Source: Alphaproteobacteria bacterium
GTDB taxonomy: Bacteria; Pseudomonadota; Alphaproteobacteria; Sphingomonadales; Sphingomonadaceae
Reading direction: 5' to 3'
Length of the DNA: 64,000 nt
NCBI GenBank assembly: GCA_018970445.1
Contig: JAGWWF010000012.1
Location: 1-64,000, forward strand
Shown here: positions 4,657 to 50,793 of the stretch, in pieces
Numbering within the stretch: position 1 is the stretch's first letter
Layout of the letters: each line of letters starts with the position of its first letter
Position numbers and translations under genes: made by a program
The notes under the pieces: generated by a model
The model's database searches: none
What the model saw: the letters and a program-made list of their open reading frames with translations, nothing else
Told to the model about the DNA's origin: nothing

Positions 4657-4671
4657 TTTCCAATTGGAATT
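4657..4671. promoter_or_regulatory. Operator-like palindrome a (Mpo1-like / araB divergent promoter)
   Basis: ATTTCCAATTGGAAT on either strand; the core TTCCAATTGGAA (4658-4669) is a perfect 12-base palindrome. It sits midway between the divergent starts at 4623 and 4732. It matches the motif found at seven other promoters in the window. Confidence 0.7.
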
Positions 4672-4731
4672 CAACAATTCTGATTCGACTTTTTCGCTTC
4701 GCATTTGCTAGTAAACGGCGAAGGAGGAGTT

Positions 4732-6417
4732 ATGTCGGACAGCAAGGCAATGTCATGCGCGGTTCTGGGGATCGACCTCGGATCCTCAGCAGCGCGTGCG
4801 GTGATCATGACGCCACGCGAAGGCCGCATCCTGGGGGATGGGGAGGCACCTTATCCCTCCGGCGTTGATAGCGTTCTGACTGACCCGGCGGACCCGGATG
4901 TCGCGCGGCAATCCCCGTTCGATTATCTTGCCGCCATCACCCAAGCAGTGCGTGCAGCCATGGCTCAAGCAAGGACGGCCAGGGTGATGGGCATCGGCAT
5001 TTGTGCCACCGGTTCGACGCCAATCCCCGTGACCGCGAACATGCAGCCGATAGCCGGTCAACCCGGCATGCAGGATCGCCCGGCTGCGCAGGCCTGGATG
5101 TGGAAGGACCACAGCGCTGCCGCCGAGGCAGAAGAGTTCGCGGCCAGCATGGCTCGGGACAATCCCGCGCGGCTGGCAGCAACGGGCGGGGCGACCTCGT
5201 CGGAATGGTTCTGGGCCAAGCTGCTGAAACTGCTCCGCGCTGATCCAGAGGTTGGCGCAATGACGGCTGCTTTTGTCGAACTGCAGGACTTTGTTCCGGC
5301 AGCGCTGTGCGGTGTTGACGATGTGGCCGGGCTTGTGCGCGGGGTGTGTGCGGCGGGGCACAAGGGGCATTGGGACCCGACGCGAGGCGGATGGCCTGAT
5401 CTTGCCAGCCTGTCCCGCCTGCATCCGGAGCTCGGCCGTGCTGCCGGCCCCCTTGCCAATCCGCGCAGCCATACACAAGCGGTGGGGAGGCTCTGCAACG
5501 CCTGGGCCGGACGACTTGGGCTGGAGCCGGGCATCCCGGTTGCGGCGGGCTTGCTTGATGCCCATGCTGGCGCGCTTGGCGCCGGGGTGGCGCCAGGCAT
5601 GCTGGTGCGGATCATGGGCACCAGCAGCTGCGACATCGCCTTGGTCGAGGGGCGCGCCCATGCCATTCCCGCACGCGGTCTGGCCGGCGCGATCGATGAC
5701 TCGGTCGTGCCTGGATTCGTGGGTGTGGAAGCCGGGCAGGCTGCGGTTGGCGATTTGTTCGCCTGGGCGGCGCGCCTGCTCAGACCTGGCGAACCGACCG
5801 GGGCAACAATTGCCGAACTCTCCGCGCTGGCCGCCGGCCTGGCGCCCGGAGAAAGCGGCCTGGTCGCATTGGATTGGAACAACGGCAATCGCTCGGTGCT
5901 GATGGACCCTGCACTCTCCGGTTTGCTGCTTGGCCAGACGCTCGCGACACGGCCCGAACATGTGTTTCGCGCCATGCTCGAAGCCAGCGCCTTTGGCGCG
6001 CGGCGCATCCGCGAACAGCTCGAAGCGGCGGGTGTGCCGATCCGGACCGTGATGGTGTCCGGCGGCGTCATCACCCGCAATGCCCTGGCCCGCTCGATAC
6101 TGGCCGATGTGCTGGGCGTGCCAATTGCGGTTTCCGGGGCCAGCCAGGCCAGTGCGCGCGGCGCAGCCATCACCGCCAGCGTCGCGGCCGGGCTGCATCC
6201 CGATTTGGGCGCTGCGCAGGCAACCATGGTCCCGCCGCCCGAAAGCGTTGCCATGCCCGACCCGGGCCGGGCTGCGACCTATTCGCGGCTCTATGGTCAT
6301 TATCTGACCCTCCACGATGCCTTCGGTGCGGCCACAGCGCCGCTGGGCGGCATGATGCGCGATCTGCGCGCCCTGCGGCGGGCAGCCACATCATCTTCAA
6401 ACGGAGCAAACTCATGA
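4732..6417 (+). CDS. araB: Ribulokinase (FGGY family)
   Basis: Start ATG 4732 follows a strong ribosome-binding site (AAGGAGG, 4721-4727). The 561-residue length equals that of enterobacterial AraB. Family landmarks include GIDLGSSAARA at the N terminus, ATGSTPIPV, MWKDHSAA, GGATSSEWFWAKLLKL, CAAGHKGHW, GLLDAHAGALGAGV, IMGTSSCDI and VPGFVGVEAGQ. These are features of ribulokinase rather than glycerol or xylulose kinases. It would phosphorylate L-ribulose (or a related ketose) with ATP. Its stop overlaps the start of the sugar isomerase gene as ATGA, so the two form an isomerase/kinase operon. No araD epimerase is present in the window. Confidence 0.9.
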   Translation: MSDSKAMSCAVLGIDLGSSAARAVIMTPREGRILGDGEAPYPSGVDSVLTDPADPDVARQSPFDYLAAITQAVRAAMAQARTARVMGIGICATGSTPIPVTANMQPIAGQPGMQDRPAAQAWMWKDHSAAAEAEEFAASMARDNPARLAATGGATSSEWFWAKLLKLLRADPEVGAMTAAFVELQDFVPAALCGVDDVAGLVRGVCAAGHKGHWDPTRGGWPDLASLSRLHPELGRAAGPLANPRSHTQAVGRLCNAWAGRLGLEPGIPVAAGLLDAHAGALGAGVAPGMLVRIMGTSSCDIALVEGRAHAIPARGLAGAIDDSVVPGFVGVEAGQAAVGDLFAWAARLLRPGEPTGATIAELSALAAGLAPGESGLVALDWNNGNRSVLMDPALSGLLLGQTLATRPEHVFRAMLEASAFGARRIREQLEAAGVPIRTVMVSGGVITRNALARSILADVLGVPIAVSGASQASARGAAITASVAAGLHPDLGAAQATMVPPPESVAMPDPGRAATYSRLYGHYLTLHDAFGAATAPLGGMMRDLRALRRAATSSSNGANS

Positions 6418-7925
6418 GCGACACCATCCGCATCTTCTGGCCGGGCGATTACCGCGTTCTGCCCAATCAGCTGGCCGTCCCGCTGCTTGAGGCGGCCACT
6501 GCGCAGCTCGAACGCGCGCTTGACCGGCTGGGCCGCAGGCACGCGCGGATCGAGGGCTTTCTCACCCGCCCCCATGAGACGATCGCCGCGCTCGGCCGGA
6601 TCGATGACCCCTTGATCGGGCTCTACACCCATTGGGTCTATGGCCCGCACACGGTCGATGGCGTGGTGGGCAAGTCCAACCCGTTGCTGATGCTGTCCAA
6701 CTTCTCGGGCACCTGGCCTGGCCTTGTCGGTCTGCTCAACACCGGGGCCTGCCTTTCAGCCGAAGGGCGCGCGCACAGCCGACTCTGGACCGCTGAACCC
6801 ATTGATGCCGACGATGCGACCATGGCGCGATTGGAGGCGTGGTGCGATACCGGGGTGGTCACGCATCCCGATGACTGTGTGCGCACACCACCCCCGGTCT
6901 CTGAGGCTGCGGACGCACTGGCTGGCAACGTCCATGCCGAGATGCAGGCCAGGCGGCCGTTGGTGCTGATGCTTGGCGATACCTCCATGGGCATGACCAA
7001 CGGCTATTTTGGCGTGCGCACGCTGCACAGGCTCGGCTTTTCAGAGCACAAGGTGGATCAGGCCTGGATCATCGATTATGGCCGACGCGTCACCGATCAG
7101 CGGATCGATGATGCGCTCGCCTTCGTGAAGGATCGCGGCGTTACCTTCCACCATGGCGGGGCCAATGCCGCCGACTTTACCGAGCAGGCGACGCGCGAAC
7201 AGCTGCGCGATTATCTCGCCGTGCTCGACATGGTCCATGAATTCGGGGCGGATGCGATTGGCTGGCAGTATCAGCTTGGCCTCATCCACCAGCGCCCGCC
7301 GTCAGACTTCGCCGAGGGCCTGTTCAACTCCACCTGCCGACCGGAAGGCAATGGCGACACCATCGTCGATGCGACCGAGGCTGACCAGGGCAATGTGCTG
7401 CCCATGGAGATGATGAAGCGCCTGCTGAATGCCAAGGGCCTGCATCAGAGTGTGGCCTTCCATGACGTGCGCTGGGGGATTGAACAGGATGGCCGCTTCC
7501 TTTGGGTGCTGCTCAATTCCGGGTCCGCCGGCGCTTTTGCCTTCAACCATGATCCCGGCACGCTGCGCGGCGTGCACAGCTTCCGCCAGCCTGCGCAATA
7601 TTTCCCCACGCCGGGCGGCAGCTTTGCCGGCGAAAGCCTGCCCGGCGCCATCACCTGGGCGCGGGCCTGGCTGGATGATGGTGAGCCGGTGATGGATGTT
7701 GGCGCTGGCGAAGTCGTGCGCCTGCCGCGCGAGACGCTGCGCGCAACATGGGATGCCACCACGCCGGAATGGCCGATCATGATGGCCGACCTGGGCATCG
7801 GCCGTGATGGACTGATGGCGCATTACCAGTCGAACCATATCGCCGTCTGCTACGGTGACATTCTGGGCGAGATGATCGCCCTGTCGCGGAGGCTTGGCTT
7901 CCGGGTGCGTTATCTGGCCGACTGA
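6414..7925 (+). CDS. Sugar isomerase of the L-fucose/L-arabinose isomerase superfamily (not classical AraA)
   Basis: Start ATG 6414 overlaps the araB stop. The frame stays open far upstream inside araB, but that region belongs to the kinase. The 503-residue protein looks like a fucose/arabinose-isomerase-family member (COG2407 type): an N-terminal alpha/beta part with GLYTHWVYGPHTVDG, a central GDTSMGMTNGYFGVRTLHRLG, then GWQYQLG and a C-terminal domain with HYQSNHIAVCYGD. Classical AraA motifs are not seen. Coupling to a ribulokinase suggests it makes L-ribulose from L-arabinose, or handles another aldose with similar stereochemistry (D-arabinose, L-fucose). The family assignment is fairly firm; the substrate is inferred. 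Confidence 0.75.
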   Translation: MSDTIRIFWPGDYRVLPNQLAVPLLEAATAQLERALDRLGRRHARIEGFLTRPHETIAALGRIDDPLIGLYTHWVYGPHTVDGVVGKSNPLLMLSNFSGTWPGLVGLLNTGACLSAEGRAHSRLWTAEPIDADDATMARLEAWCDTGVVTHPDDCVRTPPPVSEAADALAGNVHAEMQARRPLVLMLGDTSMGMTNGYFGVRTLHRLGFSEHKVDQAWIIDYGRRVTDQRIDDALAFVKDRGVTFHHGGANAADFTEQATREQLRDYLAVLDMVHEFGADAIGWQYQLGLIHQRPPSDFAEGLFNSTCRPEGNGDTIVDATEADQGNVLPMEMMKRLLNAKGLHQSVAFHDVRWGIEQDGRFLWVLLNSGSAGAFAFNHDPGTLRGVHSFRQPAQYFPTPGGSFAGESLPGAITWARAWLDDGEPVMDVGAGEVVRLPRETLRATWDATTPEWPIMMADLGIGRDGLMAHYQSNHIAVCYGDILGEMIALSRRLGFRVRYLAD

Positions 7926-7938: not shown

Positions 7939-9915
7939 TCAGCTGATGTTCCACCCGATCAGGCCATAGTTCCAGAAGGCGAACAGCAGGGGCAATGTGC
8001 CCAGCCCCAGCAGTCGCAGATGCCAGCGACCCAGACTCCCGCGCCAGCCGGTGATTGCCGGCTGGCGCCAGCTGAGGCTGGCCAGCAGCAACAGGCCAAG
8101 CAAGCATGTTGCGACCAGATTCATCCAGATCTGGAAAGGCGCCAGCTCCATGCTGGTGGTCAGCACATATTTGAGCGGCTCCACTGGCGCGCCGGCCCAT
8201 GAGCGGAAGAACAGGACCGGCGAGGCGGCCAACCCAAAAGGCATGGCCAGCGCCAGCCAGCGCCCGCGGCTGCCCTTGGCCCAGGCCGGTGCCAACAGCC
8301 CGGTCAGCAGCACCAGCACGCCGATCAGCAGGGCCTGGTTCCATAGCGCGGGGCGCGTCAGGCCTTCGGCCTTGTGATAGACGGCATCGGTGTATTGCAG
8401 GCTGGCGCGGGTGGGCTTGCCCTGTTCGTCAGGCAGGAAGACGATCACATCACTCCAGCCTGAAGGCTTGTCGGGTTGCAGCGCCTCGCTGCGCCAGAAG
8501 ACATTGTCGCCATGCGGCCGGTATCCCCGGCTCGACCCCAGCTGGAGTGCGCCATCGCCCGGCACGCTGACCGGCAACGGGCCACCCAGGAAATTGGCCG
8601 AGAAGATCTCGCTGACTGAACGGATCTGGCGACGCTGGCTGATGTAATCGCCGGCATAGGCCGCCAGATCGGGCGCTGCTTTCCCGACGGCGGCCGGCGC
8701 CTGCCAGCGACCCAGCAGTGCTTCCAGCCCGGCCGCGCGGATGCCGGCAAGCGTGGGCAACGGCCGCCCGGCCTGTACCGCATCCGGCGCCGGCGCCGGC
8801 GGCAGGCCCAGCAGCCCGGCCAGCGGCAGTGTGATGCCGCCTTCACCGGTGACGGCCACGAAGATGCCCGTCTTGCGGTCCGGCAACAACGACAGGTAAC
8901 TGCTGGTGCCGACCGTGCGCCCACCATGTTCAACAAGCCGGTTGCCGTTCCAATCGTTGATCATGAACAACAGGCCATAGCCCTGCACCGCCGGATGCGT
9001 GCCACCTTGCCGTGCAAAGGCGAGCGCACGCCCGCGGTCGCCCAGAATGTCGGCAATGCCGAGGTCGGCGCTCCCGCCCAGCAGTGCGATCATGTAGTGC
9101 GCCGCATCCCGGCCTGACATGGCGAGTGCACCGGCCATCCGGTTGATGGGGTGGTTGGCCCAGCCATCGGGCAGTGGCCGCGCGCCGCCATTGGGGTAGA
9201 TGACCTGAGCCTGCGCGGAATCGGGAAACCTTCCCGGCCCGCGCACGACAATGGCGCCCGCCATCCGCGCCGGGCCGAACACCCGTTCGGCGAGATGGCG
9301 GTCAATCGGCATCTTCACGGCATCTTCGGCCATGAAGCCGAGCAGGCCGGCGCCAAAGTTGGAATAGTTGCTGCCGGTGTTGGCGGCGACGATATAGCCT
9401 GGGAGATTGGCATCAAGATAAGCGCCATCGATGGTCGGGAAGCTGTCGCCGGTCCGCATGAACGGCTGGCGACGTTCGGCAAAGCCGGCTTGGTGCGTTG
9501 CCAGCATGCGGATGGTGATCGGGGTGCCGCGATTGTCGGGCACTTGCCAGCGGGAAAGATAGGCATTGACCGGATCATCGATTGACCGGATGCGGCCATC
9601 CGCCATCGCCTGTGCCACCGCCACCCCCACCAGCGTCTTGGTGATGGAGCCGGTGCGGAATCGGGTGCGCACCGGATCCACAGGCAGCCGGCCAGCGGCA
9701 TCGGCATGGCCATAGCCCTTGAGCAGCGCGATCTTCCCGTCACTTACAATGGCGACCACCGCACCGGTGTGCCTGACCTTGCCGCCAGGGTCGAACAACC
9801 GGTCAAAGGCGGTTTCAGCCTGGGCGATGGGCAGCGGTGCAGGCGCTTGCGCCATGGCCGGCGGTGTCGACACCAACAGCATCACCGCTGCCAACAGCCG
9901 TGCACCCAAGCCCAT
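7939..9915 (-). CDS. Secreted/membrane serine hydrolase, beta-lactamase class C fold with C-terminal membrane segments
   Basis: I chose ATG 9915, which has GGAGGTG just upstream and begins a signal peptide ending near AMAQA; the frame extends further 5' but runs through the shared operator. The 658-residue protein has SITK (Ser90-Lys93), YSN and HGG motifs of the class C beta-lactamase/DD-peptidase fold. The C-terminal 130 residues contain several hydrophobic helices, so the catalytic domain is probably tethered on the periplasmic face. MlrB of microcystin degraders and D-amino acid esterases/amidases share this fold. Nothing marks it as an antibiotic resistance enzyme. It diverges from an MFS gene and nearly abuts the isomerase gene at its 3' end (13 bases). 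Confidence 0.85.
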   Translation of the reverse strand: MGLGARLLAAVMLLVSTPPAMAQAPAPLPIAQAETAFDRLFDPGGKVRHTGAVVAIVSDGKIALLKGYGHADAAGRLPVDPVRTRFRTGSITKTLVGVAVAQAMADGRIRSIDDPVNAYLSRWQVPDNRGTPITIRMLATHQAGFAERRQPFMRTGDSFPTIDGAYLDANLPGYIVAANTGSNYSNFGAGLLGFMAEDAVKMPIDRHLAERVFGPARMAGAIVVRGPGRFPDSAQAQVIYPNGGARPLPDGWANHPINRMAGALAMSGRDAAHYMIALLGGSADLGIADILGDRGRALAFARQGGTHPAVQGYGLLFMINDWNGNRLVEHGGRTVGTSSYLSLLPDRKTGIFVAVTGEGGITLPLAGLLGLPPAPAPDAVQAGRPLPTLAGIRAAGLEALLGRWQAPAAVGKAAPDLAAYAGDYISQRRQIRSVSEIFSANFLGGPLPVSVPGDGALQLGSSRGYRPHGDNVFWRSEALQPDKPSGWSDVIVFLPDEQGKPTRASLQYTDAVYHKAEGLTRPALWNQALLIGVLVLLTGLLAPAWAKGSRGRWLALAMPFGLAASPVLFFRSWAGAPVEPLKYVLTTSMELAPFQIWMNLVATCLLGLLLLASLSWRQPAITGWRGSLGRWHLRLLGLGTLPLLFAFWNYGLIGWNIS

Positions 9916-9971
9916 CTTCACCTCCACTGCTGGACAGGAGCGTAAAGATATGTTCAGCAATCGACAAGATG

Positions 9972-9986
9972 TTTCCAATCGGAAAT
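9972..9986. promoter_or_regulatory. Operator-like palindrome b (serine hydrolase / MFS divergent promoter)
   Basis: TTTCCAATCGGAAAT, one of the best copies of the shared motif, 57 bases upstream of the hydrolase start (9915) and 67 bases upstream of the MFS start (10053). Confidence 0.75.
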
Positions 9987-10052: not shown

Positions 10053-11351
10053 ATGACACAGGTGCGGGCATGGATCATGGTGGTGGCGTTGCTGCTGGCT
10101 GCCATCATCTCGTTCATCGATCGCCAGCTGCTCAGCCTGATGGTGGATCCGATCCGGCACGACCTGGGCATCAGCGATTTCCAGATCGGTCTGCTGGTGG
10201 GGCCAGCCTTTGCCGTGTTCCATGCCGTGGCCGGCATCCCCTGCGGCTGGCTGGCCGATCGCATGGGGCGTGGCCGGCTGGTGGCCGGGGGCATAGCCCT
10301 ATGGTCGCTGCTGACCATGGCCAGTGGTGTTGCTGCCAGCTACGGCCAGCTTTTGCTGGCCCGCATGGGTGTCGGGGTGGGCGAGGCGACGTTGGGGCCA
10401 AGTGCCCATTCCCTCATAGCTGACAGCTTTGATGCGCGGCGCCTGCCCATGGCCATGGCGGTCTATTCCACCGGCGTGGCCCTGGGCGCCGGCCTGGCCT
10501 TTGCCTTTGGCGGGCAGGCGGTGCTTTGGGCCGGGCAGTTGCCCACCAGCATGCCGGCATTGGCACATCTGCACGACTGGCAACGCGCGTTCCTGCTGGT
10601 CGGTCTGCCCGGCCTGCTGGTATCGGCGTTGGTGCTGCTGGTGGTGCGTGACCGGCGCCAGACATCTGCTCGTCCGGCACCTGCCGCCATGCTGACAGGT
10701 CTAGGCCCACTTTGGCGCGACAACCGGCAACTGGTTTTGCTCTACCTGCCTGCCATCAGCGCATTGACCGGGTCAGGCTATGCCAGCCTGACCTGGTTGC
10801 CGGCGCATTTCATCCGCAATTTCGGCTGGAGCCCGCAGCAGGTGGGCTGGATGCTGGGATTGATGCTGATGCTGGCCGGCGTGGCAGGGGCTATCGCTGC
10901 CGGACTGGCGGCTGGCTGGCTAGCGCGGCGCGGGCGCGTGGATGCGCCGCTGCTGGTCATCACGGTCAGCGCCCTTTTGCATGCCCCGCTGACTGCGGCA
11001 GTTACGCTGGTGGCCACCCCGGTGGTGGCGACCTGGCTGCTGGTGCCGGCCACCTTCCTGTCCAGTGCTTTTGTGGCGCTGGGGCCAGCGGCAGTGCAGG
11101 CCGCGACGCCGGTACCGCTGCGCGGCCGGGTGGCGGCCATCGTGCTGATGGTCACCAGCCTGGTCGGCATGGTCGCCGGACCGGTGGGCGTTGGGGCACT
11201 GACATCATTTCTGTTTGGCGATGACCGTGATGTTGGCCTGGGGCTGGCGCTGGTGGCCGGGCAGTTGTCGCTGCTGGGCGGGCTGTTGCTGCTGGCTGCC
11301 CTGGCGCCTTACCGGACGGTCATGGCGCGGATCAGAAGCGGGCGGGGCTGA
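10053..11351 (+). CDS. MFS transporter (spinster/ACS-like)
   Basis: The 432-residue protein has about twelve hydrophobic segments. It carries the MFS loop 2-3 signature GWLADRMGRGRL and the N-terminal FIDRQLLSLMVDPI pattern common to sphingomonad spinster-like or ACS-family carriers. The central loop is short. Substrate cannot be read from sequence; members often move organic acids, sugars or peptide-derived compounds. It is divergent from the serine hydrolase and shares its operator. Its 3' end overlaps the convergent threonine dehydratase gene by 20 bases. Confidence 0.88.
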   Translation: MTQVRAWIMVVALLLAAIISFIDRQLLSLMVDPIRHDLGISDFQIGLLVGPAFAVFHAVAGIPCGWLADRMGRGRLVAGGIALWSLLTMASGVAASYGQLLLARMGVGVGEATLGPSAHSLIADSFDARRLPMAMAVYSTGVALGAGLAFAFGGQAVLWAGQLPTSMPALAHLHDWQRAFLLVGLPGLLVSALVLLVVRDRRQTSARPAPAAMLTGLGPLWRDNRQLVLLYLPAISALTGSGYASLTWLPAHFIRNFGWSPQQVGWMLGLMLMLAGVAGAIAAGLAAGWLARRGRVDAPLLVITVSALLHAPLTAAVTLVATPVVATWLLVPATFLSSAFVALGPAAVQAATPVPLRGRVAAIVLMVTSLVGMVAGPVGVGALTSFLFGDDRDVGLGLALVAGQLSLLGGLLLLAALAPYRTVMARIRSGRG

Positions 11352-42962: not shown

Positions 42963-42975
42963 TTTGACACAAGTA

Positions 42976-42990
42976 TGTCATATCGGAAAT
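42976..42990. promoter_or_regulatory. Operator-like palindrome f (TonB receptor promoter)
   Basis: TGTCATATCGGAAAT, 53 bases before the receptor start at 43044. It also forms a local inverted repeat with arms TCATAT and ATATGA (42978-42994). Confidence 0.6.
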
Positions 42991-43043: not shown

Positions 43044-45401
43044 ATGGCGGGGCTTGCGAAGGGTGTTTCAGTTTTGGCGTTGGCGGCAGCCTGGGCTGCG
43101 GCGCCGGCACATGCGCAAAGCGGCGATGCTTCTGCCGGAGCGAATGACGCCACCGCCGAAATCGTGGTCACAGCCCTGCGACGGGAGACGTCGCTGAAGG
43201 ATGCGCCGCTGTCGATTGCAGTGGTCAACGCCGAAACCTTGCAGCAGCAGGCGGTGGACGATTTCTTCGACCTGGCCCTGCGCGTGCCGAACGTGGCGAT
43301 TTTCGAAAACAACAACCTTTCGGGCCGCACGGCGGTGACGATCCGCGGCATTCCGGGCCGTGCTGGCATTTTCGTTGACGACGTGTTCGTGGGCGACAGT
43401 TCCGCCATCAATACGCTACTGGTGGATGTTGATCGGGTTGAGGTGCTGCGCGGCCCGCAGGCCACGCTTTTTGGCCGCAACGCCATTTCCGGTGCGATCA
43501 ACACCATCACCCGCAAGCCGGGCAATGAACTCTTTGCCCAAGGCCGTGTCCGCTATGGCAGTTACAACGAAACCTATGTGGCCGGGGCCTTCGGCACGCC
43601 GATCGTCAAGGATCTGCTGGCTGCCAAGATCTCGGGCGCCTATCGCAAGAATGATGGCTTCGATCGGGAGCGGAATGGCGGCCGGGTCAACGGCGACGAT
43701 GGCTGGGCATTGCAGGGCCAACTCCGTTTCACGCCGTCATCCAGCGTCGATATCCTGATTTCCGGTGATTATTCGAAGGACAATAACCACACCGGCTATA
43801 CGGATGCCGTTGCCGATTACTCGCTCAACAACGCGCCGGGGCAGACTTTCCTCAATGCAGGGAGGGATGGCAAGGGCTTTGATCGCATGGTGCCGGATCG
43901 CGATGGCATCAACACGCAGAACCGCAAGATCTGGGGCCTGTCAGGCACCATTGACTTCGACATCGGCTTTGCAAACCTGAAATCCATCACCGCGTATCGC
44001 GAGGTTTCCTTCCTCTACAAGCGGGACGGCGACGGCACTTCCTTTGACATCATCAGTGGCACCCAGCCGGTGGATTATCACCAGTTCAGCCAAGAATTCC
44101 GGCTGGTGTCCAAGCCTTCCGACCATTTTGAATGGCTGGTCGGGGGCTATTACTTCAGGGACAAGCGCACCTCGCGTGACAGCAACCTCCTGGGCTCGGA
44201 CTGGATCATCGCCACGGTGCCGCCGCTGGCGGCACTGGCGCCCCCGCTGGTGCCAGGCGGCACGGCCGGGGTGGTCACCGTGGGCCGACTGTTCGCCAGC
44301 ACCACCCTGCAGAACATCATCGGCGTGCGCCCGCCATCCAATGTCCTTGGCACCCAGGAAACCTTTGACCAGAACGAGATCGAGAGCTTTGCCGGCTTCG
44401 GCTCCGCCACCTGGAAGATCTCGCCGCAACTCGAGCTCACCGGCGGTCTGCGCTACACCCGGGAAAAGGTGGACGGCGCCTATGGCCGCAACGTGTCGGG
44501 GTTCCTGGTGAATTTCGTGCCGCCGATTGCCCGCCAGCAACTGAGCAGCGGCTGGGATGGCGAATGGTCACCAATGGCCAGCCTGTCTTATCGGCCGTCC
44601 AGGGAAGTGACGCTGTATGCCACCTTCAGCACCGGCTTCCGCAGTGGCGGGTTCAACCTGGCGCCGGCCGCCGTCAATCCGCCGGCAAATGATGCCGCCC
44701 AGCGCCGGTTCCGCCCGGAAACGGTGACCAACTATGAAGCGGGCGTGAAATCCGTGCTGCTGGACGGCAAGCTCTATGCCAATGCCGCCGTGTTCTACAT
44801 GAAGTATCAGGATTTCCAGCGCAGCTTCTACCGGATTGATCCGGTGACGGGCGCACAGGTCAACACCTTCAACGCCGAGGCCAGCATGCGCGGCCTTGAA
44901 CTCGAATTGACCGCAACGCCCACTAAATGGCTGACGCTCTCGGCCGGATATGGTTATCAGGACAGCAAATACGGCAGCTATGCCAACGCGCCGGTGCAGT
45001 CCTATCTTGTGCCCAACCCGGCAGGTGCATTGCTGACCACGGATCTGACCGGCGCCCAGCTGCCCTTCGCGCCAAAACACAGCCTCACGCTGTCCGGCGT
45101 GGCCCGCATCCCGGTGAATGATCGCCTGCAGATCACCACCGGTTCCGACATGCAATTGCGTTCATCTTATCCGGTGTCGGACGGGATCGATGCCATCCGC
45201 ATTGTTGGGGACACGTTCCAGCTGAACGGCTTCATCTCGCTGGGCCCGGCGAACGGCCGGTGGCAAGTGACCGGCCGCGTGCGCAATCTGACCAACCAAG
45301 TTTACCGCACCGGGCTCGATTACAACAATTTCGTTGGCACGGTCTATCAGAGCCTGTCCGCACCGAGAACTTTCGCCATCGAGGCCTCATTCCGTTTCTG
45401 A
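43044..45401 (+). CDS. TonB-dependent outer-membrane receptor
   Basis: I chose ATG 43044, with GGGGAGG seven to eight bases upstream; an in-frame ATG at 42975 would place the operator inside the gene. The 785-residue protein has a signal peptide (ending APAHAQ), a TonB box (EIVVTA) and a plug domain with DDVFVGD, VEVLRGPQATLFGRNAISGAINTITRKP (in parts VLRGPQATLFGRN and GAINTITRKP). A beta barrel ends in the aromatic FAIEASFRF. It would import a substrate too large for porins. It has its own copy of the shared operator and is followed by the XRE-cupin regulator gene after 67 bases. Confidence 0.93.
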   Translation: MAGLAKGVSVLALAAAWAAAPAHAQSGDASAGANDATAEIVVTALRRETSLKDAPLSIAVVNAETLQQQAVDDFFDLALRVPNVAIFENNNLSGRTAVTIRGIPGRAGIFVDDVFVGDSSAINTLLVDVDRVEVLRGPQATLFGRNAISGAINTITRKPGNELFAQGRVRYGSYNETYVAGAFGTPIVKDLLAAKISGAYRKNDGFDRERNGGRVNGDDGWALQGQLRFTPSSSVDILISGDYSKDNNHTGYTDAVADYSLNNAPGQTFLNAGRDGKGFDRMVPDRDGINTQNRKIWGLSGTIDFDIGFANLKSITAYREVSFLYKRDGDGTSFDIISGTQPVDYHQFSQEFRLVSKPSDHFEWLVGGYYFRDKRTSRDSNLLGSDWIIATVPPLAALAPPLVPGGTAGVVTVGRLFASTTLQNIIGVRPPSNVLGTQETFDQNEIESFAGFGSATWKISPQLELTGGLRYTREKVDGAYGRNVSGFLVNFVPPIARQQLSSGWDGEWSPMASLSYRPSREVTLYATFSTGFRSGGFNLAPAAVNPPANDAAQRRFRPETVTNYEAGVKSVLLDGKLYANAAVFYMKYQDFQRSFYRIDPVTGAQVNTFNAEASMRGLELELTATPTKWLTLSAGYGYQDSKYGSYANAPVQSYLVPNPAGALLTTDLTGAQLPFAPKHSLTLSGVARIPVNDRLQITTGSDMQLRSSYPVSDGIDAIRIVGDTFQLNGFISLGPANGRWQVTGRVRNLTNQVYRTGLDYNNFVGTVYQSLSAPRTFAIEASFRF

Positions 45402-45468
45402 CCAGAAACGAGGCTTGACCTTCCTTGTCGCCACGCCAATGATTCTCGGGAGAAGGATCATCCGAGAC

Positions 45469-46116
45469 ATGGCGACAAGAAAGCGTACTGCCCCGATCAA
45501 TTCCCCCCGGGTGGAGGAGCGCGCGCCGGAGAATCTGGGCGCGCACATCCGGGAATTGCGGTCGGAGCGGCGGTGGTCGTTGAGTGAGTTGTCTTCGCGT
45601 TCGGGAATCGCCGCCTCAACCCTGTCGAAGGTGGAGAATGACACACTGTCATTGACTTATGACCGGCTGATGATGGTGGCGCGCGGCTTCGGGCTGTCCC
45701 TGTCAGAGTTTCTCGCCCCGCGCAGCGAAGCGGTGACGGCGAACCAGGGCGTTGCGCGCATCAGCTGGGCCCGCCGCGGCTCTGGCGAGCGGGTGGTGAC
45801 TGGCGCATACAAATCCGATTACCTTTGTGGCAATCTGCGGCAGAAACGCATGATCCCTTTGCTCACCGAGGTGCGGGCCCGCACGCTGGAAGAATTCGGC
45901 CCCCTGCTGCGGCACGAGGGTGAGGAATTCGTGTTCGTGCTTACCGGCCGGGTGGAAGTGAACACCGAATTCTACGAACCGGAAATCCTGGAGCAGGGTG
46001 AAGGCGTATACATCGACAGCCGCCAAGGGCATGCATATTTGAATGCCTCTGACGAGGTGTCCATCATCCTGTCAGTCAACTCCGAAACGCCCAAGGACAA
46101 TCTGATCACCGATTGA
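45469..46116 (+). CDS. XRE-family regulator with C-terminal cupin domain
   Basis: ATG 45469 gives 215 residues; AGAAGG lies about 12 bases upstream, and ATG 45439 is an alternative start. Residues 22-82 form an HTH_3 domain (LGAHIRELRSERRWSLSELSSRSGIAASTLSKVEND..., here cited in parts), with the recognition helix near residues 48-58. Residues about 130-205 form a double-psi beta-helix cupin with HEGEEFVFVLTGRVEV and YIDSRQGHAYLN, a small-ligand sensor. Regulators of this kind control amino acid, polyamine and peptide catabolism. It is the only transcription factor gene in the 3-56 kb island and the best local candidate for the shared palindrome. It overlaps the convergent hydrolase gene by 11 bases. 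Confidence 0.9.
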   Translation: MATRKRTAPINSPRVEERAPENLGAHIRELRSERRWSLSELSSRSGIAASTLSKVENDTLSLTYDRLMMVARGFGLSLSEFLAPRSEAVTANQGVARISWARRGSGERVVTGAYKSDYLCGNLRQKRMIPLLTEVRARTLEEFGPLLRHEGEEFVFVLTGRVEVNTEFYEPEILEQGEGVYIDSRQGHAYLNASDEVSIILSVNSETPKDNLITD

Positions 46117-47266
46117 CCGTTGCCGGCAGCTGCCCTCGCTGGGCTGCCAGGAAGCCGCGAATGGCTGCAAGGGTGAAGGCCGGCTCGGTCAGCACGAAGT
46201 AATGCCCGGCACCTGGTCGCGCCTTCATGAGGATGCCGCGGCTGGTGAAACCTACATAATCCCGGGTCCATTGCGCGCGCAGCAACTGCCAGTTCTGCAA
46301 TTCGCGCGGCGTCAGCCCCTTCGGCGCCTGCTTGCCGATTTCCGCTGCGGATTGGTCCTGAACGATCATCAGGACCGGCAAGTCTCCCAACGCGCCCGGC
46401 GCGCGCGCGAGCGCCAGGCCGTTCTGGCAGATCAGGGACAGCGCCTCACGCTGGGCGGCCAGCGAACGCGGGCGCGATTCCAAGTTCACCAATGTGGGAT
46501 AAAGCGCACCCAGCGCCCGGTTCGGGCTGCCTGGCGTGTCAGCGTTCATCGGGTTGAGCGACGGAACCAACCCAAGGCCGAACATGGAGGCCCAGAAGGC
46601 AAGGCCACCGGGCGCTGTCGGCCCGCATCCATAAAGGCTCTGCTGTTCGACAAACCAGCTTGGCGGGGTTGGATCGAGCAGGATCGCCGCTGGCACCCGA
46701 TCGGGATAGGCTTGGGCCAGGTTGGCAGCGACCAGCCCGCCTACCGAATGGCCCACTGGCACGATTCGGCTCGTCTCGCCCGCCGAAGTCACCGCCTGCA
46801 TCAATTCGCTGATGATGGTTTCCAGCTTGCGCGGCGTGTGCGCGGCATCGGCCCAACCGGTGCCGGGCCTGTCAACCAGACAACTGCGGTGAGTTTCCCG
46901 CAGGGCCTTGTGCAGGGGTGCCAGGAACCAGCCCGATGAATAGGCGCCGGATACCAACAAAAGCGTGGGGCCACCCCTGGGGCCTTCGCACAGCACGAAC
47001 AATCGCTCCGAACCCACGTTGATCAACCGCCCGCCTGCCGGGCGGGCCGCTTCCAGATCGCTGGCAGCATTGGCCATGGCGAGTGCGCCGGCGGCCAGCG
47101 CGAGGCCTGCAAGCGTCAGCACCGCCCCCAACCCGCCAAGCCCAGCCCGGCGCCAGCCCATGCCGCGCCAGCTGCGGTGCAGGGTTAGCCCGCCCATCAG
47201 CAACACCGTTGCGGCGGCCAGCCAGGGAAACAACGGACCGACGAGAAATGAGGTCATGGCTGGCAT
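46106..47266 (-). CDS. Membrane-anchored alpha/beta hydrolase
   Basis: I chose ATG 47266, with GGAG five bases upstream; the frame extends 5' but crosses the operator. The 386-residue protein has two or three N-terminal hydrophobic helices (residues 8-70). An alpha/beta hydrolase fold follows, with LLLVSGAYSSGW, VDRPGTGWAD and nucleophile elbow VGHSVGG (Ser174); the catalytic His is probably in AGHYFVL near the C terminus. It is likely an esterase, lipase or amidase held at the inner membrane. It diverges from the DUF819 gene and shares operator g. Confidence 0.85.
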   Translation of the reverse strand: MPAMTSFLVGPLFPWLAAATVLLMGGLTLHRSWRGMGWRRAGLGGLGAVLTLAGLALAAGALAMANAASDLEAARPAGGRLINVGSERLFVLCEGPRGGPTLLLVSGAYSSGWFLAPLHKALRETHRSCLVDRPGTGWADAAHTPRKLETIISELMQAVTSAGETSRIVPVGHSVGGLVAANLAQAYPDRVPAAILLDPTPPSWFVEQQSLYGCGPTAPGGLAFWASMFGLGLVPSLNPMNADTPGSPNRALGALYPTLVNLESRPRSLAAQREALSLICQNGLALARAPGALGDLPVLMIVQDQSAAEIGKQAPKGLTPRELQNWQLLRAQWTRDYVGFTSRGILMKARPGAGHYFVLTEPAFTLAAIRGFLAAQRGQLPATVNR

Positions 47267-47310
47267 GCTCCATCGATGGGCCAGTGAACAAAATCGGTAT
47301 AGACACAATG

Positions 47311-47325
47311 TTTCTAAAATGAAAC
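47311..47325. promoter_or_regulatory. Operator-like palindrome g (alpha/beta hydrolase / DUF819 divergent promoter)
   Basis: GTTTCTAAAATGAAA/C region, a weaker copy of the motif. It lies 45 bases upstream of ATG 47266 and 11 bases before a short upstream frame that leads into the DUF819 gene. Confidence 0.5.
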
Positions 47326-47335
47326 GATACTTTCC

Positions 47336-47395
47336 ATGTTGCTTCCCCGATCTGATGGGCCTGCCACATTGGCCGGCCGGCCTTGCTCGCCATGA
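47336..47395 (+). CDS. Possible 19-residue leader peptide coupled to the DUF819 gene
   Basis: ATG 47336 opens a 19-codon frame whose TGA (47393-47395) overlaps ATG 47392 of the DUF819 gene as ATGA. It starts only 10 bases after operator g and has no clear ribosome-binding site. The DUF819 gene also lacks its own ribosome-binding site, so coupling through this frame is plausible. It may be chance. Confidence 0.3.
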   Translation: MLLPRSDGPATLAGRPCSP

Positions 47396-48522
47396 CGCTT
47401 GCTGCTGGCACCGACCTGCTGGCGCTGGCGCTGATGGCCGGCTGCGTGCTCGCTGGCCTGTGGGTGGCCCGGCAGCCGCGCCTGGCCTGGTTCAGTCCGC
47501 CGATGACGGCATTGGCGCTGGTTGTGGCATTGGCCAATTCCGGGATCATGCCACCCAGCGGCGGGCTTGCGGTGCCCGGCCTGTTGTCCGGCCCGCTGCT
47601 GGCGGCGGCGATCTTCCTGCTGTTGCTGCAGGCTGATCTGCGCGGGATCATGGCGGTGGGGCCGGGCCTGTTGCTGGCCTTTTTGGTTGGTTGTGTTGCG
47701 GTGGCAGTGGCTGCATTAGCGGCGGCCAGAATGCCGGCGATCGTGCAGGTCATCGGCCCACAGGCCGCGGAAGTGGCCGGCATGTTTGCCGGCACTTACA
47801 CGGGCGGCGCCGTCAACTTCAATACACTGGCCGCTAGCTTTGGCATGGATCGCCAGGGGCTGGTGTTTCTGGGCGCCACCGCGGTCGACAATGTCTGGAC
47901 GGCGCTGTGGATCATGGCCTGCGGGCTGGCGGCCAGCCGTATTCGGGCAAAGTCACCCACTCCCGCGACGCTGGCAGCGCCAGAAGGCAGACCGGGCAAT
48001 GATCTGTCGGTCGAGGCTTTGGCGCTGGGCACCATTGCCAGCATCGCGGCGGTCTGGGCGGGCGCATGGGCGGGCCAACAACTGCCGCTGGTCCATCCAT
48101 TGCTGTGGACCACGGTCATTGCCCTGGTCGCGGCGCAGACCCCGCTTTCGCGGTTGGGCCGGGTGCTGGAACCCGTGGCCATCTTGCTGCTTTACCTCTT
48201 TATCGCCTCGCTCGGCATCGATGTCAGGGTGGCGGACTTTGGCGACGCGATGGGCCTCCTGGCGGGCCTTGCTGCCATGGTGGGGGTAATTCTGGCGGTG
48301 CATGCGGCCGTGATGCTGGCGATTGCCCGCTGGACGCATATCGACCGCGGCGCGCTGATCGTCGCCTCCCAAGCAGCCATTGGCGGCCCGCCGACAGCCA
48401 TTGCGGTTGCACAAGCGCTTGATCGCCATGACTTGCGGCTGCCCGCCGTGCTGATGGGCTTGCTGGGCTACGCCATTGGTACGTGGCTGGGCCTTGCTGT
48501 CACGTTGCTGGCCAGTCGCTAG
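47392..48522 (+). CDS. DUF819 family membrane protein (putative transporter)
   Basis: I chose ATG 47392 (376 aa); TTG 47383 is an alternative, and neither has a clear ribosome-binding site. The protein has about ten hydrophobic helices and the DUF819 signature FAGTYTGGAVNFNTLAASFG. A second-half repeat with VASQAAIGGPPTAIAVAQA follows. Family members are uncharacterised carriers of the keto acid / inverted-repeat transporter type. It is divergent from the membrane hydrolase and overlaps the convergent dipeptidase gene by 4 bases, so it may move a product of the pathway. Confidence 0.83.
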   Translation: MTLAAGTDLLALALMAGCVLAGLWVARQPRLAWFSPPMTALALVVALANSGIMPPSGGLAVPGLLSGPLLAAAIFLLLLQADLRGIMAVGPGLLLAFLVGCVAVAVAALAAARMPAIVQVIGPQAAEVAGMFAGTYTGGAVNFNTLAASFGMDRQGLVFLGATAVDNVWTALWIMACGLAASRIRAKSPTPATLAAPEGRPGNDLSVEALALGTIASIAAVWAGAWAGQQLPLVHPLLWTTVIALVAAQTPLSRLGRVLEPVAILLLYLFIASLGIDVRVADFGDAMGLLAGLAAMVGVILAVHAAVMLAIARWTHIDRGALIVASQAAIGGPPTAIAVAQALDRHDLRLPAVLMGLLGYAIGTWLGLAVTLLASR

Positions 48523-49496
48523 GCATCAACCCAGCAACGCTGGGCAATGCGATGCCAGTTGCCACCCATGATGGCCGCAACCTCGCCAGGCGCAAGACCC
48601 GCCGACAGCAACCCGGCCCGTATGGCCGGCACTGCTTCCGGCGGGGTACATTCCGTGGGCGCCTCATAACCTGAACCTGGCGGAAAACTGCCTTTCATGG
48701 CGGATTTTTCACTTTCGAGCCCGGCCAGATCAAAGACGAAATCCAGCCCGAGCCCAACGTGCAATGGCCCCACCAGGGCCACCAGCTGCAGCAGATGTTG
48801 CACAACCAGCGTCTCCAGCGCCGCGCCCTGGCCCAGGAAGAGGCGCAAGCCATTGACCCCAATCACACCACCGCTGGCAGCGCAGGCCAGCGCCAGTTCG
48901 TTTGAGATGTTGCGCGGATGGTCACAAGCCGTCCGCAGGTTGGAATGCGACAGGATCATCGGCTTGCGGGCGACCGCCAATGCTGCCATTGCCGCTTCAG
49001 GCGCGGTGTGGCTGAGGCATACCACGATGCCGGCGTCTTCCATCGCGCTGATCAGGTCCCTGCCAGCCGGGGTCAACCCGGCTTCATCATGCACCCCGCC
49101 GGCAGCCCAGTTGCGCCGGTTGTAAGCCAGCAGCATCCACCGCACGCCCAGGTCGTGCAGGATGCCGACACGCGACAGATCGCCCTCCAGAGGGGCGGCA
49201 CCTTCGACATCAAAAACCACAGCCAAGCGACCGGCGCGACGCGCTGCTTCGATCTGCTTTACCGAGCGCGCCAGGCAGAAGCGGTCCGGCCGCGCCGATA
49301 ACCAGGCCGTGATGGCCTGCGCCATGGCCAGATGTTCGTCCCAGGCCATTTCCCCATAGCCAATGTTGAGGCTGACCACATCGACGCCTGCGTGGGCATA
49401 CCGGTCAAGCACGCCCAGATGGGCAGGCAGATCGGCTAGCGCCATGGGCGGACAGGCGTGATTGTCCCAAACAGGTGGCGGCAATTGAGCGGTCAT
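48519..49496 (-). CDS. Membrane dipeptidase family (M19) enzyme with altered first metal motif
   Basis: ATG 49496 overlaps the MFS stop (ATGA); 325 residues. Metal-site elements of M19 renal-dipeptidase enzymes are visible: His13 in DNHACP, Glu98 in FDVEGA, His163 in LSHTAPEA, His184 in LSHSNLR and Asp252 in GLDFVFD. The usual HxD of the first motif reads His13-x-Cys15, so the normal aspartate ligand is missing. M19 enzymes cut dipeptides, including those with a C-terminal D-residue or dehydro residue. The enzyme lacks a signal peptide, so it is probably cytoplasmic. It is paired with an NupG-like MFS carrier. Confidence 0.85.
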   Translation of the reverse strand: MTAQLPPPVWDNHACPPMALADLPAHLGVLDRYAHAGVDVVSLNIGYGEMAWDEHLAMAQAITAWLSARPDRFCLARSVKQIEAARRAGRLAVVFDVEGAAPLEGDLSRVGILHDLGVRWMLLAYNRRNWAAGGVHDEAGLTPAGRDLISAMEDAGIVVCLSHTAPEAAMAALAVARKPMILSHSNLRTACDHPRNISNELALACAASGGVIGVNGLRLFLGQGAALETLVVQHLLQLVALVGPLHVGLGLDFVFDLAGLESEKSAMKGSFPPGSGYEAPTECTPPEAVPAIRAGLLSAGLAPGEVAAIMGGNWHRIAQRCWVDA

Positions 49497-50737
49497 GGAA
49501 CCTCCGCGGTTGTGGTCGGGGCCTGCCGGGTCATGATGACATGGGCCAGCGCCACGCCGGCCGCCAGCAGCGCCGGCACCAGCCACAATACTGGCCAATC
49601 GGGCATGCCATCAGGCTGTCGGGTGGCCGTGGCCACCAGATTAGCAAGGTTGGCGCCAATCACGGTGCCAATGCCCAGCGTCATGAAGGTCAGGAACGCC
49701 TGGGCTCGGGCCCGGGCGGCAGGTGGGAAGAGCCTGTCCACATGCACCTGCCCTGCAACAAAGAAGAAATCATAGCAGACACCGTGCAGCAATATGCCTG
49801 CCAGCAGCATCCAGGTCGTCGCGCCATCAGCCGAATGGCCAAACGCAAACAGCAGATACCGCGCCACCCAGGCCAGCATGCCGATCAGCAGCACCCAGCG
49901 GATCCCCAGCCGCGCCAGCGCGAGCGGCAACAACAGCATGAACAGGATTTCCGAAACCTGGCCCAGCGATTGGACGGCGGCGGCACGCGGCATGCCGGCC
50001 GCGATCAGGAAGGCATTGGCATAGGCATAGTAGAAGCTGAGCGGCACGACGATCAGGGTGGAGCAGGCAATGAACACCCAGAAACCACGCTCACGCACAG
50101 ACAAAGCGAAATCAAAACCCAGCAGCGTTGACCAGCCTTGCCTCGCGTTGGCCGGGGGCGGGGGCGGCTTCGGCAGTGTGAAGCAGTAAAGACCCAGAAC
50201 TGCAGCACCCATTGCTGCCAGGAAAATGGGTGCGCGGGTGGGCTCCAGCGGGCCTGTAGGCAGCAGGCCAACTGCCAGTGCCAAATCAGGCCCGAAGCCA
50301 ATCAGCAGTCCGGCCACAATCCAGCCAATGGTGCCCAATGCCCGGATCGGCGGGAATTGCCGCGTGCTGTCCTCCAGCAGGGCCATAACGACCGCGTTCG
50401 ACAGCGGAATGGTCGGCATGTAGAGCAGCATGACCAGCAGCACGGCACCAATCATGCGGCCATTGCCACTTTCAACATATGCCAAATGGAGCAGCGCTGC
50501 CGCGCCCAGCACATGCAATATGCCCAGCAGGCGCCCAGCCTGGACATGGCGGTCGGCCAGCGCGCCGAACAGCATAGGGCTGACAATCGCGGCATAACCC
50601 TGCGTGGCATAGGTGGTGCCGATGATATCGTCGAACGGGCCCGCCGCGAGCCAGGCGCCCAGTGTGACCCACCATGCGCCCCACACGAAATATTGGGCGA
50701 ACATCAGCAGCCCCAGGCGCGCCGCTAGCACTGACAT
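49493..50737 (-). CDS. MFS transporter (nucleoside:H+ symporter-like family)
   Basis: I chose ATG 50737, with GGAG six bases upstream; ATG 50746 is an alternative. The 414-residue protein has twelve hydrophobic segments. The N terminus (RLGLLMFAQYFVWGAWWVTLGAWL) is typical of the NupG/XapB-like branch. It also has YMPTIPLSNAVVMALLED and RALGTIGWIVAGLLIG. Members of this branch in Bacteroidetes and alphaproteobacteria often accompany sugar or peptide catabolic genes rather than nucleoside genes. It is translationally coupled to the dipeptidase gene, suggesting uptake of its substrate. Confidence 0.85.
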   Translation of the reverse strand: MSVLAARLGLLMFAQYFVWGAWWVTLGAWLAAGPFDDIIGTTYATQGYAAIVSPMLFGALADRHVQAGRLLGILHVLGAAALLHLAYVESGNGRMIGAVLLVMLLYMPTIPLSNAVVMALLEDSTRQFPPIRALGTIGWIVAGLLIGFGPDLALAVGLLPTGPLEPTRAPIFLAAMGAAVLGLYCFTLPKPPPPPANARQGWSTLLGFDFALSVRERGFWVFIACSTLIVVPLSFYYAYANAFLIAAGMPRAAAVQSLGQVSEILFMLLLPLALARLGIRWVLLIGMLAWVARYLLFAFGHSADGATTWMLLAGILLHGVCYDFFFVAGQVHVDRLFPPAARARAQAFLTFMTLGIGTVIGANLANLVATATRQPDGMPDWPVLWLVPALLAAGVALAHVIMTRQAPTTTAEVP

Positions 50738-50778
50738 CGTCTCCAATTAGATGACTTGATGCATATACGATATTTGAG

Positions 50779-50793
50779 TATCGAAATGGAAAC
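50779..50793. promoter_or_regulatory. Operator-like palindrome h (MFS / sox divergent promoter)
   Basis: TATCGAAATGGAAAC (reverse complement GTTTCCATTTCGATA), a weaker copy of the motif between the divergent starts at 50737 and 50807/50890. Confidence 0.5.

What the first reader, a model, noticed from the sequence alone, without database searches (positions are those of the whole stretch)
4657..50793. One imperfect palindrome at eight promoters defines a 46-kb regulon
Intergenic sites at 4657, 9972, 16167, 22951, 38671, 42976, 47311 and 50779 share a 15-base motif. Aligned as GTTTC-N3-ATTGGAAT or its complement, the consensus is about GTTTCCRATTGGAAT. Seven lie between divergent genes and one is before the TonB receptor. 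Every divergent promoter of the 3-56 kb island has one, and I saw no full copy in the neighbouring GH92 locus. The last two copies are weaker. The motif looks like a dimer-binding operator; IclR-family sites are similar in style, so a regulator outside the window is possible.
Basis: seen in the sequence. Interest (0 to 1): 0.87.

Follow-up and report, generated by a model that had tools for sequence, protein, structure and literature searches.

The report
Shared repressor switch across 46-kb island
A short mirror-image DNA site recurs at the promoters of a 46-kb block of peptide- and sugar-digesting genes, and comparison with related bacteria points to a regulator encoded inside the block as the protein that binds it, so a clear, testable new regulatory circuit of a familiar type has been found.

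Summary
All eight sites exist and share the dyad GTTTC-N6-GAAAC (core TTTCCNATNGGAAA); spacing N2, not N3, fits. In the 3.03-Mb genome TTTCNNATYGGAAW has five exact places, four in this window; 12 congeners have none or one each. Left out in turn, each site ranks 2-10 of 63,985 positions.

The regulator is most likely the in-window XRE-cupin protein (45469-46116). A matrix made only from promoters of its homologues in related genomes, without window sequence, ranks the sites 1, 2, 3, 5, 7, 13, 14 and 26 and adds 4677, 38690 and 45394, the last just before the XRE-cupin gene. In relatives, 41 sites can be oriented by a TTGACA -35 box just upstream, often with a second copy 19-20 bp downstream: a repressor-like layout. 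In the window, -35-like boxes lie at a different distance.

So this looks like a local XRE-cupin regulon, a kind known from Pseudomonas (PsdR, PauR), with a different operator and a large contiguous target set, probably for D-amino-acid peptide scavenging. Binding, repression and effector are inferred. A perfect dyad at 64472, beyond the window, is probably a centromere site.

The parts
4656..4671 (.). operator 1 (Mpo1-like / FGGY kinase divergent promoter)
   Evidence: relatives-only matrix rank 1; leave-one-out rank 2
4677..4690 (.). second operator of a doublet, +20 from 4657 (missed by reader)
   Evidence: relatives-only palindromic matrix, score 12.9, eighth listed peak; offset 20
9971..9986 (.). 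operator 2 (serine hydrolase / MFS divergent promoter)
   Evidence: rank 2; TCGACA -35-like at 9961
16166..16181 (.). operator 3 (dehydrogenase E1-E2-threonine ammonia-lyase genes / GHL6 hydrolase)
   Evidence: rank 5; leave-one-out rank 3
22950..22965 (.). operator 4 (SBP5-serine hydrolase-M81 / D-aminoacylase-like, D-Ser dehydratase-like, Dpp-like genes)
   Evidence: rank 14; leave-one-out rank 10
38670..38685 (.). operator 5 (3-keto-disaccharide hydrolase-GMC-GFO genes / DgcN-DgcA)
   Evidence: rank 3; overlaps the longest possible start (38687) of the leftward gene; a later in-frame ATG at 38672 gives a signal-peptide-like start (sequence, my reading)
38690..38703 (.). second operator of a doublet, +19 from 38671 (missed by reader)
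   Evidence: sixth peak with the palindromic matrix, first with both non-palindromic ones
42975..42990 (.). operator 6, TonB receptor promoter; lies between TTGACA (42964) and -10-like AAATAT (42987)
   Evidence: rank 13; promoter elements from my scan, not reported by the stricter tool
45394..45409 (.). candidate operator before the XRE-cupin gene (missed by reader), GTTTCTGACCAGAAAC; its left half overlaps the end of the TonB receptor gene
   Evidence: fourth peak; one of only four GTTTCN6GAAAC places in the genome
47310..47325 (.). operator 7 (alpha/beta hydrolase / DUF819 divergent promoter)
   Evidence: rank 7; perfect GTTTC/GAAAC arms; leave-one-out rank 8
50778..50793 (.). operator 8, weakest (nucleoside-type symporter-M19 dipeptidase / sarcosine oxidase-like genes)
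   Evidence: rank 26; leave-one-out rank 10
63073..63088 (.). weak candidate in the amylase / AraC divergent promoter of the GH92 side
   Evidence: relatives-only matrix score 11.1; doubtful
45469..46116 (+). XRE-cupin regulator gene (HTH_3 + Cupin_2), proposed repressor
   Evidence: Pfam; start ATG 45469 read and checked; homologues and linkage
4732..7925 (+). FGGY kinase (ribulokinase-like) and fucose-isomerase-C-like gene
7939..9927 (-). serine hydrolase (Pfam Beta-lactamase family)
10077..11351 (+). MFS transporter
11332..16129 (-). threonine ammonia-lyase, 2-oxoacid dehydrogenase E2, E1 (aceE-like, below its cut-off)
16229..18241 (+). GHL6 glycoside-hydrolase-like protein
18234..22910 (-). 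small SnoaL/DUF4440-like ORF (below cut-off), M81 metallopeptidase (MlrC-like), serine hydrolase, SBP_bac_5 peptide-binding protein
22988..30544 (+). amidohydrolase (D-aminoacylase-like), D-Ser dehydratase-like, Dpp-like ABC transporter genes, second M81 peptidase
30498..38687 (-). GH2, serine hydrolase, GFO/IDH/MocA, gluconate-2-DH-3-like, GMC oxidoreductase, 3-keto-disaccharide hydrolase
38745..42962 (+). DgcN-like, DgcA-like racemase, S9 peptidase
43044..45401 (+). TonB-dependent receptor (the ATG at 42975 lies inside the operator; 43044 is the likelier start)
   Evidence: sequence
46106..55291 (.). alpha/beta hydrolase (-), DUF819 (+), M19 dipeptidase (-), nucleoside-type symporter (-), sarcosine oxidase beta- and alpha-like genes (+)

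Best explanation
The palindromes are operators of the XRE-cupin protein encoded at 45469-46116. As a dimer it binds TTTCCNATNGGAAA-type sites in the core promoters, in the best cases between the -35 and -10 boxes, and blocks RNA polymerase. It thereby keeps off up to about fifteen transcription units (seven divergent pairs plus the TonB unit) for peptide and sugar uptake and breakdown. A small molecule derived from the substrate, probably a D-amino-acid-containing peptide or its product, binds the cupin domain, releases the protein and switches on the 46-kb island. The XRE-cupin gene is itself autoregulated through 45394 and/or the TonB promoter. Shown by computation: the sites, their excess, a matching site at the homologues' promoters, and the promoter geometry in relatives. 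Inferred: binding, the direction of control (repression), and the effector.
For: A palindromic motif search on 37 upstream regions of XRE-cupin homologues from other genera gave tTcCtaATtaGgAa (log-likelihood gain 130.7, against 17.7 for the best of 60 starts on base-shuffled regions). Its half GATTGGAAA and its spacing equal the window motif. That matrix, ignorant of the window, ranks the eight reader sites 1, 2, 3, 5, 7, 13, 14 and 26 of about 64,000 positions, with permuted-matrix and background controls. Conversely, a matrix of six window sites finds 55 hits at score >=12 in the relatives' stretches, against 9 in the reversed stretches (top six per stretch counted). In relatives, sites also lie in other intergenic regions of the same loci, including before TonB, M19-like, DgcN and DAA genes: 42 in tandem and 14 in divergent regions, against 2.5 and 1.6 on average for 60 permuted matrices. 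A TTGACA-like box begins 8 bp before the site in 29 of 94 intergenic sites and 1 of 28 coding ones. A second copy at +20 or +19 is seen in 16 and 5 of 41 oriented sites. Three named Sphingomonadales plasmids repeat the pattern. The XRE-cupin is the only regulator found by Pfam among the gene products of 3-56 kb, and the own genome has one homologue at E <= 1e-15. Twelve congeners have 0 (10) or 1 (2) exact TTTCNNATYGGAAW.
Against: The window protein is only 34-48% identical to the 20 aligned homologues, so specificity may have shifted; window sites favour TTTC arms, relatives' sites often TCC arms. The 37 training regions are partly orthologous, so shared descent inflates the motif score. Two non-palindromic matrices rank several sites lower (16167 at 12 and 17, 42976 at 20 and 27, 22951 at 32 and 63, 50779 at 27 and 58). 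No window site has a TTGACA-like box at the relatives' distance of 7-9 bp (0 of 9); 4 of 9 have one at 11-12 bp, against 22 of 832 intergenic positions, but that distance was chosen after seeing the data, only one box is a perfect TTGACA, and the strict promoter tool finds none at the TonB promoter. XRE-cupin loci of Azospirillum, Roseomonas, Ensifer, Pandoraea and L004 show no such site at the regulator's promoter. No expression or binding data exist.
Confidence: 0.83

Rival explanations
1. The operators belong to a regulator encoded outside the window (for example IclR-, LacI- or GntR-type) that shares a similar palindrome.
For: Several regulator families bind palindromes of similar style (recalled). 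The genome has five further Cupin_2 matches besides this gene, four of them over the cut-off; whether any carries an HTH was not examined. I did not survey other regulators of the genome.
Against: A dyad of the same form lies upstream of XRE-cupin homologues in many genera and before genes linked to them; no other regulator was found among the gene products of 3-56 kb; only one homologue at E <= 1e-15 in the genome.
Confidence: 0.1
2. Only the best sites (4657, 9972, 16167, 38671/38690, 45394, 47311) are operators; 22951, 42976 and 50779 are chance or belong to another factor, so the regulon is smaller.
For: Their relatives-only scores (10.6, 10.9, 8.7) are reached elsewhere: 34 peaks >=10.5 in 353 kb of background, 4 of them intergenic; 22951 also lies in a different inverted repeat CGTATCGG-AA-CCGATACG.
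Against: Leave-one-out ranks 10, 8 and 10 with 2, 0 and 3 background positions; each lies in a promoter region, and 42976 sits between -35- and -10-like boxes.
Confidence: 0.3
3. The palindromes are centromere-like sites of a ParB/SopB-type protein on a former plasmid, not operators.
For: A SopB-HTH gene lies at C15:64511-65593 (minus strand) with a perfect GTTTCCTATAGGAAAC at 64472 just after it; the region is absent next to the same chromosomal genes in the four congeners examined.
Against: The island sites are in seven of seven divergent promoters, not in an array; related sites in other genera go with XRE-cupin loci and TTGACA boxes.
Confidence: 0.04
4. The excess is an artefact of AT-rich intergenic DNA and choice of sites by eye.
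For: A loose 3-mismatch search is not above chance.
Against: Column-permuted matrices, congeners, background stretches and an outside-trained matrix speak against it.
Confidence: 0.01

Closest known systems
PsdR of Pseudomonas aeruginosa (XRE-cupin, dipeptide regulator)
   Same: XRE-cupin architecture; palindromic site; controls a metallo-dipeptidase and a Dpp peptide-binding protein next to its own gene (PMC10965056 passages; PMC7901475 passages).
   Different: Operator TTAAG-N5-CTTAA against TTTCC-N4-GGAAA here; two adjacent targets (plus lasR as reported in PMC10965056) against about eight promoters over 46 kb.
PauR of P. aeruginosa (XRE-cupin, polyamine regulator)
   Same: XRE-cupin repressor with many operators, including one before its own gene (PMC7901475 passages).
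   Different: 29 genes at 12 locations scattered over the genome; here the sites are packed in one island, and the pathway differs.
DbuR of Pseudomonas putida (XRE-cupin repressor of D-branched-chain amino acid catabolism)
   Same: D-amino-acid related; divergent gene; 20-bp palindrome in a footprint that includes the -10 (PMC12724383 passages).
   Different: Single operon; operator sequence differs.
PuuR (NCBIfam NF007408)
   Same: Best-scoring NCBIfam model for this protein.
   Different: 43.8 bits against a cut-off of 211: not filed as a PuuR.

Membership tests
XRE-cupin local transcription regulators | XRE/Cro helix-turn-helix followed by a cupin domain | tested here: met
   HTH_3 and Cupin_2 over their Pfam cut-offs
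XRE-cupin local transcription regulators | palindromic operator, at least one in an intergenic region next to its own gene | tested here: met
   in sequence only: 45394 beside the gene, 47310 beside the next gene; in relatives 27 XRE-upstream regions hold 33 sites at score >=12, though these regions trained the matrix
XRE-cupin local transcription regulators | targets are small-molecule uptake or processing genes | tested here: met
   Pfam/NCBIfam names of the genes beside the sites
XRE-cupin local transcription regulators | inhibits transcription (operator over the promoter) | tested here: inconclusive
   geometry clear in relatives, different and weaker in the window; no expression data
XRE-cupin local transcription regulators | binding in vitro and release by an effector | not testable with these tools
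   needs EMSA and ligands
PsdR orthologue | operator TTAAG-N5-CTTAA | tested here: not met
   motif found is TTTCC-N4-GGAAA; PsdR's own sequence was not compared
IclR-type operator | IclR-family gene linked to the sites | tested here: not met
   no IclR domain among the gene products of 3-56 kb; the rest of the genome was not surveyed
PuuR (NF007408) | score over the curated cut-off | tested here: not met
   43.8 of 211 bits
DgcN / DgcA D-glutamate pathway (target genes) | score over the NCBIfam cut-offs | tested here: inconclusive
   DgcA 403.3 of 400 (met), DgcN 458.3 of 480 (just missed)

The most novel reading that the evidence does not exclude
One XRE-cupin signal protein, elsewhere in the family the keeper of a compact D-peptide locus, has captured every divergent promoter of a 46-kb accessory island that joins peptide, D-amino-acid and glycoside catabolism. 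The whole island would then be a single inducible machine for one glycosylated, D-amino-acid-containing molecule, switched in part by doublet operators set about two helical turns apart.
Probability: 0.25. Interest if true: 0.65.

Novelty: new member of a known kind. Interest (0 to 1): 0.47.

Why it matters
It gives an operator sequence, promoter geometry and probable regulator for a group of XRE-cupin loci found in 37 of 199 sampled genomes of this family, own genome included; 30 of the 35 XRE-cupin stretches that I read also hold a DgcN homologue. It turns a list of hydrolases into one testable regulon, and co-regulation would suggest that the peptide and sugar genes of the island serve one substrate.

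Tried and rejected
Loose consensus search in the window: not above chance; replaced by matrices. Simple scan of 29 short loci of relatives for the window dyad: weak (8 against a mean of 1.8, max 4), because relatives often use TCC rather than TTTC arms. Exact-arm dyads in XRE-upstream regions: no common one; the probabilistic search succeeded. Same motif at the regulator's promoter in Azospirillum, Roseomonas, Ensifer, Pandoraea and an alphaproteobacterial MAG: not found at score >=12. Strict promoter tool at the TonB promoter: none; my own laxer scan lists several, so single-promoter calls are weak. Relatives' -35 distance in the window: 0 of 9 sites. Island-border search: the four congeners' matches to contig C15 stop at the SDR gene at 65.7 kb, no tRNA found. 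Solved structures with the single protein: nothing; with the profile: nine sequences, among them the HTH protein 1y9q and HPP epoxidase. Literature: searches listed no paper that by title or abstract start describes this regulon (22, 38 and 53 listed papers on D-amino acids, other XRE proteins or other regulons; others listed none). Only open-licence PMC papers are held, so this is no proof of absence from print.

Rows dropped: the 353-kb background left out L183 because it is on contig C15. The stretch 38651-38687 was counted as intergenic because the gene start is uncertain. XRE-upstream regions of 900 bp or more were not used. Of 29 places outside the window (up to 1 mismatch) I opened 15. 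Gene labels in relatives are best blastp hits to window proteins, some as low as 22% identity.
Full report
WHAT WAS CHECKED. The window is contig C15, bases 1-64000, of a 3.03-Mb, 45-contig genome. The family is unnamed by the tools. Named homologues of the regulator on Novosphingobium, Sphingobium and Croceicoccus plasmids suggest a sphingomonad, which is inference. Gene calls come from a codon-usage caller that I trained on window genes, with Pfam and NCBIfam names.

THE SITES. All eight sites are present. They align on an even dyad whose ideal form is GTTTCCNATNGGAAAC. Two points needed correction. The spacing is N2, not N3. And a loose mismatch search does not exceed chance (11 found, 7.9 expected). 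Sharper tests do. The pattern TTTCNNATYGGAAW has five exact places in the genome, four of them here. With one mismatch there are 35 distinct places, six in the window; I opened 15 of the 29 outside, of which 11 lie in coding DNA and 4 are intergenic, the latter including 64473. Twelve congeneric genomes have 0 (10 genomes) or 1 (2 genomes) exact match (one of them is only 75% complete). In leave-one-out tests the omitted site ranks 2 to 10 among 63,985 positions, with 0 to 3 equal or better positions in 353 kb of other own-genome DNA.

THE REGULATOR. The only regulator among the Pfam hits of 3-56 kb is an XRE-cupin protein; its likely start is 45469. Of 199 family genomes, own included, 37 have a match at E <= 1e-15. 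I took 40 stretches around homologues and DgcN hits. By my annotation 35 of the 40 carry an XRE-cupin gene, and of these 35, 30 also carry a DgcN homologue, 30 the first serine hydrolase type, 25 a TonB receptor, 21 an M19-type hit and 17 DgcA. In 22 of 37 XRE-upstream regions the divergent neighbour is that serine hydrolase type. The selection was centred on these genes, so the linkage counts are descriptive.

INDEPENDENT MOTIF. Expectation maximisation on the 37 XRE-upstream regions of relatives, with no window sequence, gave the palindrome tTcCtaATtaGgAa (gain 130.7, best shuffle 17.7). The regions are partly orthologous, so shared descent contributes. Typical sites are ATCCTGATTGGAAA: same centre, same spacing and same GATTGGAA half as the window. 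The gaps at 4, 6 and 8 are new sites: 45394 just before the XRE-cupin gene, 38690 (19 bp from 38671) and 4677 (20 bp from 4657). Two non-palindromic versions rank 16167, 42976, 22951 and 50779 lower, down to 63. Ten intergenic peaks reach 10.5, against a mean of 0.71 (max 8) for 300 column-permuted matrices. In the background, 27 kb of intergenic DNA holds four. In the opposite direction, the six-site window matrix gives 55 hits at score >=12 in relatives against 9 in reversed sequence.

THE PROMOTER LAYOUT. In relatives, sites lie in other intergenic regions of the same loci as well: 42 in tandem and 14 in divergent regions at score >=12, against 2.5 and 1.6 on average for 60 permuted matrices, and only 3 in convergent regions (0.55 permuted). 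A TTGACA-like box begins 8 bp before the 14-mer in 29 of 94 intergenic sites and in 1 of 28 coding ones. The 41 sites that can be oriented by a box at 7-9 bp give the consensus GtTTGACAATTTTCcAATcAGGAcaATtat.tCC..AT.gGga. The operator is thus in the spacer, with a -10-like stretch after it and a second operator at +20 (16 of 41) or +19 (5 of 41); 8 of 41 have one at -20; the mean over offsets is about 1%. The window differs: no site has the box at 7-9 bp (0 of 9), but 4 of 9 (9972, 38671, 42976, 47311) have one at 11-12 bp, against 22 of 832 intergenic positions, a distance picked after seeing the data. TTGACA at 42964 with AAATAT at 42987 brackets the TonB operator. The 3-4 bp difference is unexplained. 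Blocking RNA polymerase is the natural reading and matches what is reported for Pseudomonas XRE-cupin proteins (PMC7901475 and PMC12724383, passages seen).

HOLD-OUTS. Plasmid loci of Novosphingobium sp. EMRT-2, Sphingobium yanoikuyae and Croceicoccus marinus have XRE-cupin, serine hydrolase, dipeptide epimerase, TonB receptor and DUF1611 genes. All three carry sites at score >=12 between the regulator and the serine hydrolase and before the TonB gene. They could be related to genomes already in the training set, so they are not perfectly independent. Azospirillum and Roseomonas loci and a MAG show no hit at score >=12; two of three Pandoraea loci show one hit, inside a gene; an Ensifer locus has two intergenic sites away from the XRE-cupin promoter. 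The specificity is therefore clade-limited. In Roseomonas the homologue is divergent from M81 - SBP - amidohydrolase genes, the same kind of module that lies at 18.6-30.5 kb here.

EFFECTOR. The 21 aligned proteins (20 homologues and this one) all keep H149, E153 and H188, aligned to the HxGNEF...H stretch of hydroxypropylphosphonate epoxidase. From recall, that stretch binds iron. A metal-assisted ligand pocket is possible but untested. The targets (DgcA- and DgcN-like, D-aminoacylase-like, M19, M81, S9 and serine-hydrolase families, Dpp-like transporter, TonB receptor) point to D-amino-acid-containing peptides; the sugar genes suggest that the molecule may be glycosylated. This is inference.

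THE 64-kb COPY. GTTTCCTATAGGAAAC at C15:64472 is one of only four GTTTCN6GAAAC places in the genome, three of which are on C15. It follows a gene with a SopB centromere-binding HTH domain; I saw no TTGACA box at the expected distance in the sequence. I take it for a partition site. The part of C15 left of 65.6 kb is not found next to the syntenic SDR-MarC-FolD genes in the four congeners examined, so the island is probably accessory DNA.

VERDICT. Confirmed and extended: a new regulon of a known kind, with the regulator assigned by comparative evidence, about eleven operators in the window (three weak), and binding, repression and effector still inferred.

Noticed in passing
contig C15:64472-64487 and 64511-65593 (L080:4472-5593), just outside the window: Perfect palindrome GTTTCCTATAGGAAAC directly after a gene with a SopB-type centromere-binding HTH; likely a partition site, hinting at a former plasmid or mobile element.
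   Followed up: partly
window 1-64000 and on to C15:65.6 kb: Not found beside the syntenic SDR/MarC/FolD genes in four congeners; the congeners listed also lack the XRE-cupin (3 listed), the D-Ser dehydratase-like gene (6 listed) and the BNR protein (12 of 12). Probably an accessory island; no tRNA found in the window or L080.
   Followed up: partly
22954-22971: Inverted repeat CGTATCGG-AA-CCGATACG overlaps operator 4; may be a different factor's site.
   Followed up: no
11332-16129: Threonine ammonia-lyase beside AceE-like E1 and E2 genes on one strand: a possible 2-oxobutyrate/pyruvate dehydrogenase dedicated to the island.
   Followed up: no
18611-20068 and 29063-30544: Two M81 (MlrC-like) metallopeptidases, far below the microcystinase cut-off (309 and 322 of 999 bits).
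   Followed up: no
L200 (Roseomonas marmotae plasmid p1318-3): XRE-cupin homologue divergent from M81-SBP-amidohydrolase genes, without this operator: perhaps a different specificity in the same family.
   Followed up: partly
relatives' loci L136, L141, L143, L144, L145, L150: Doublet operators 19-20 bp apart, as at 4657/4677 and 38671/38690.
   Followed up: yes
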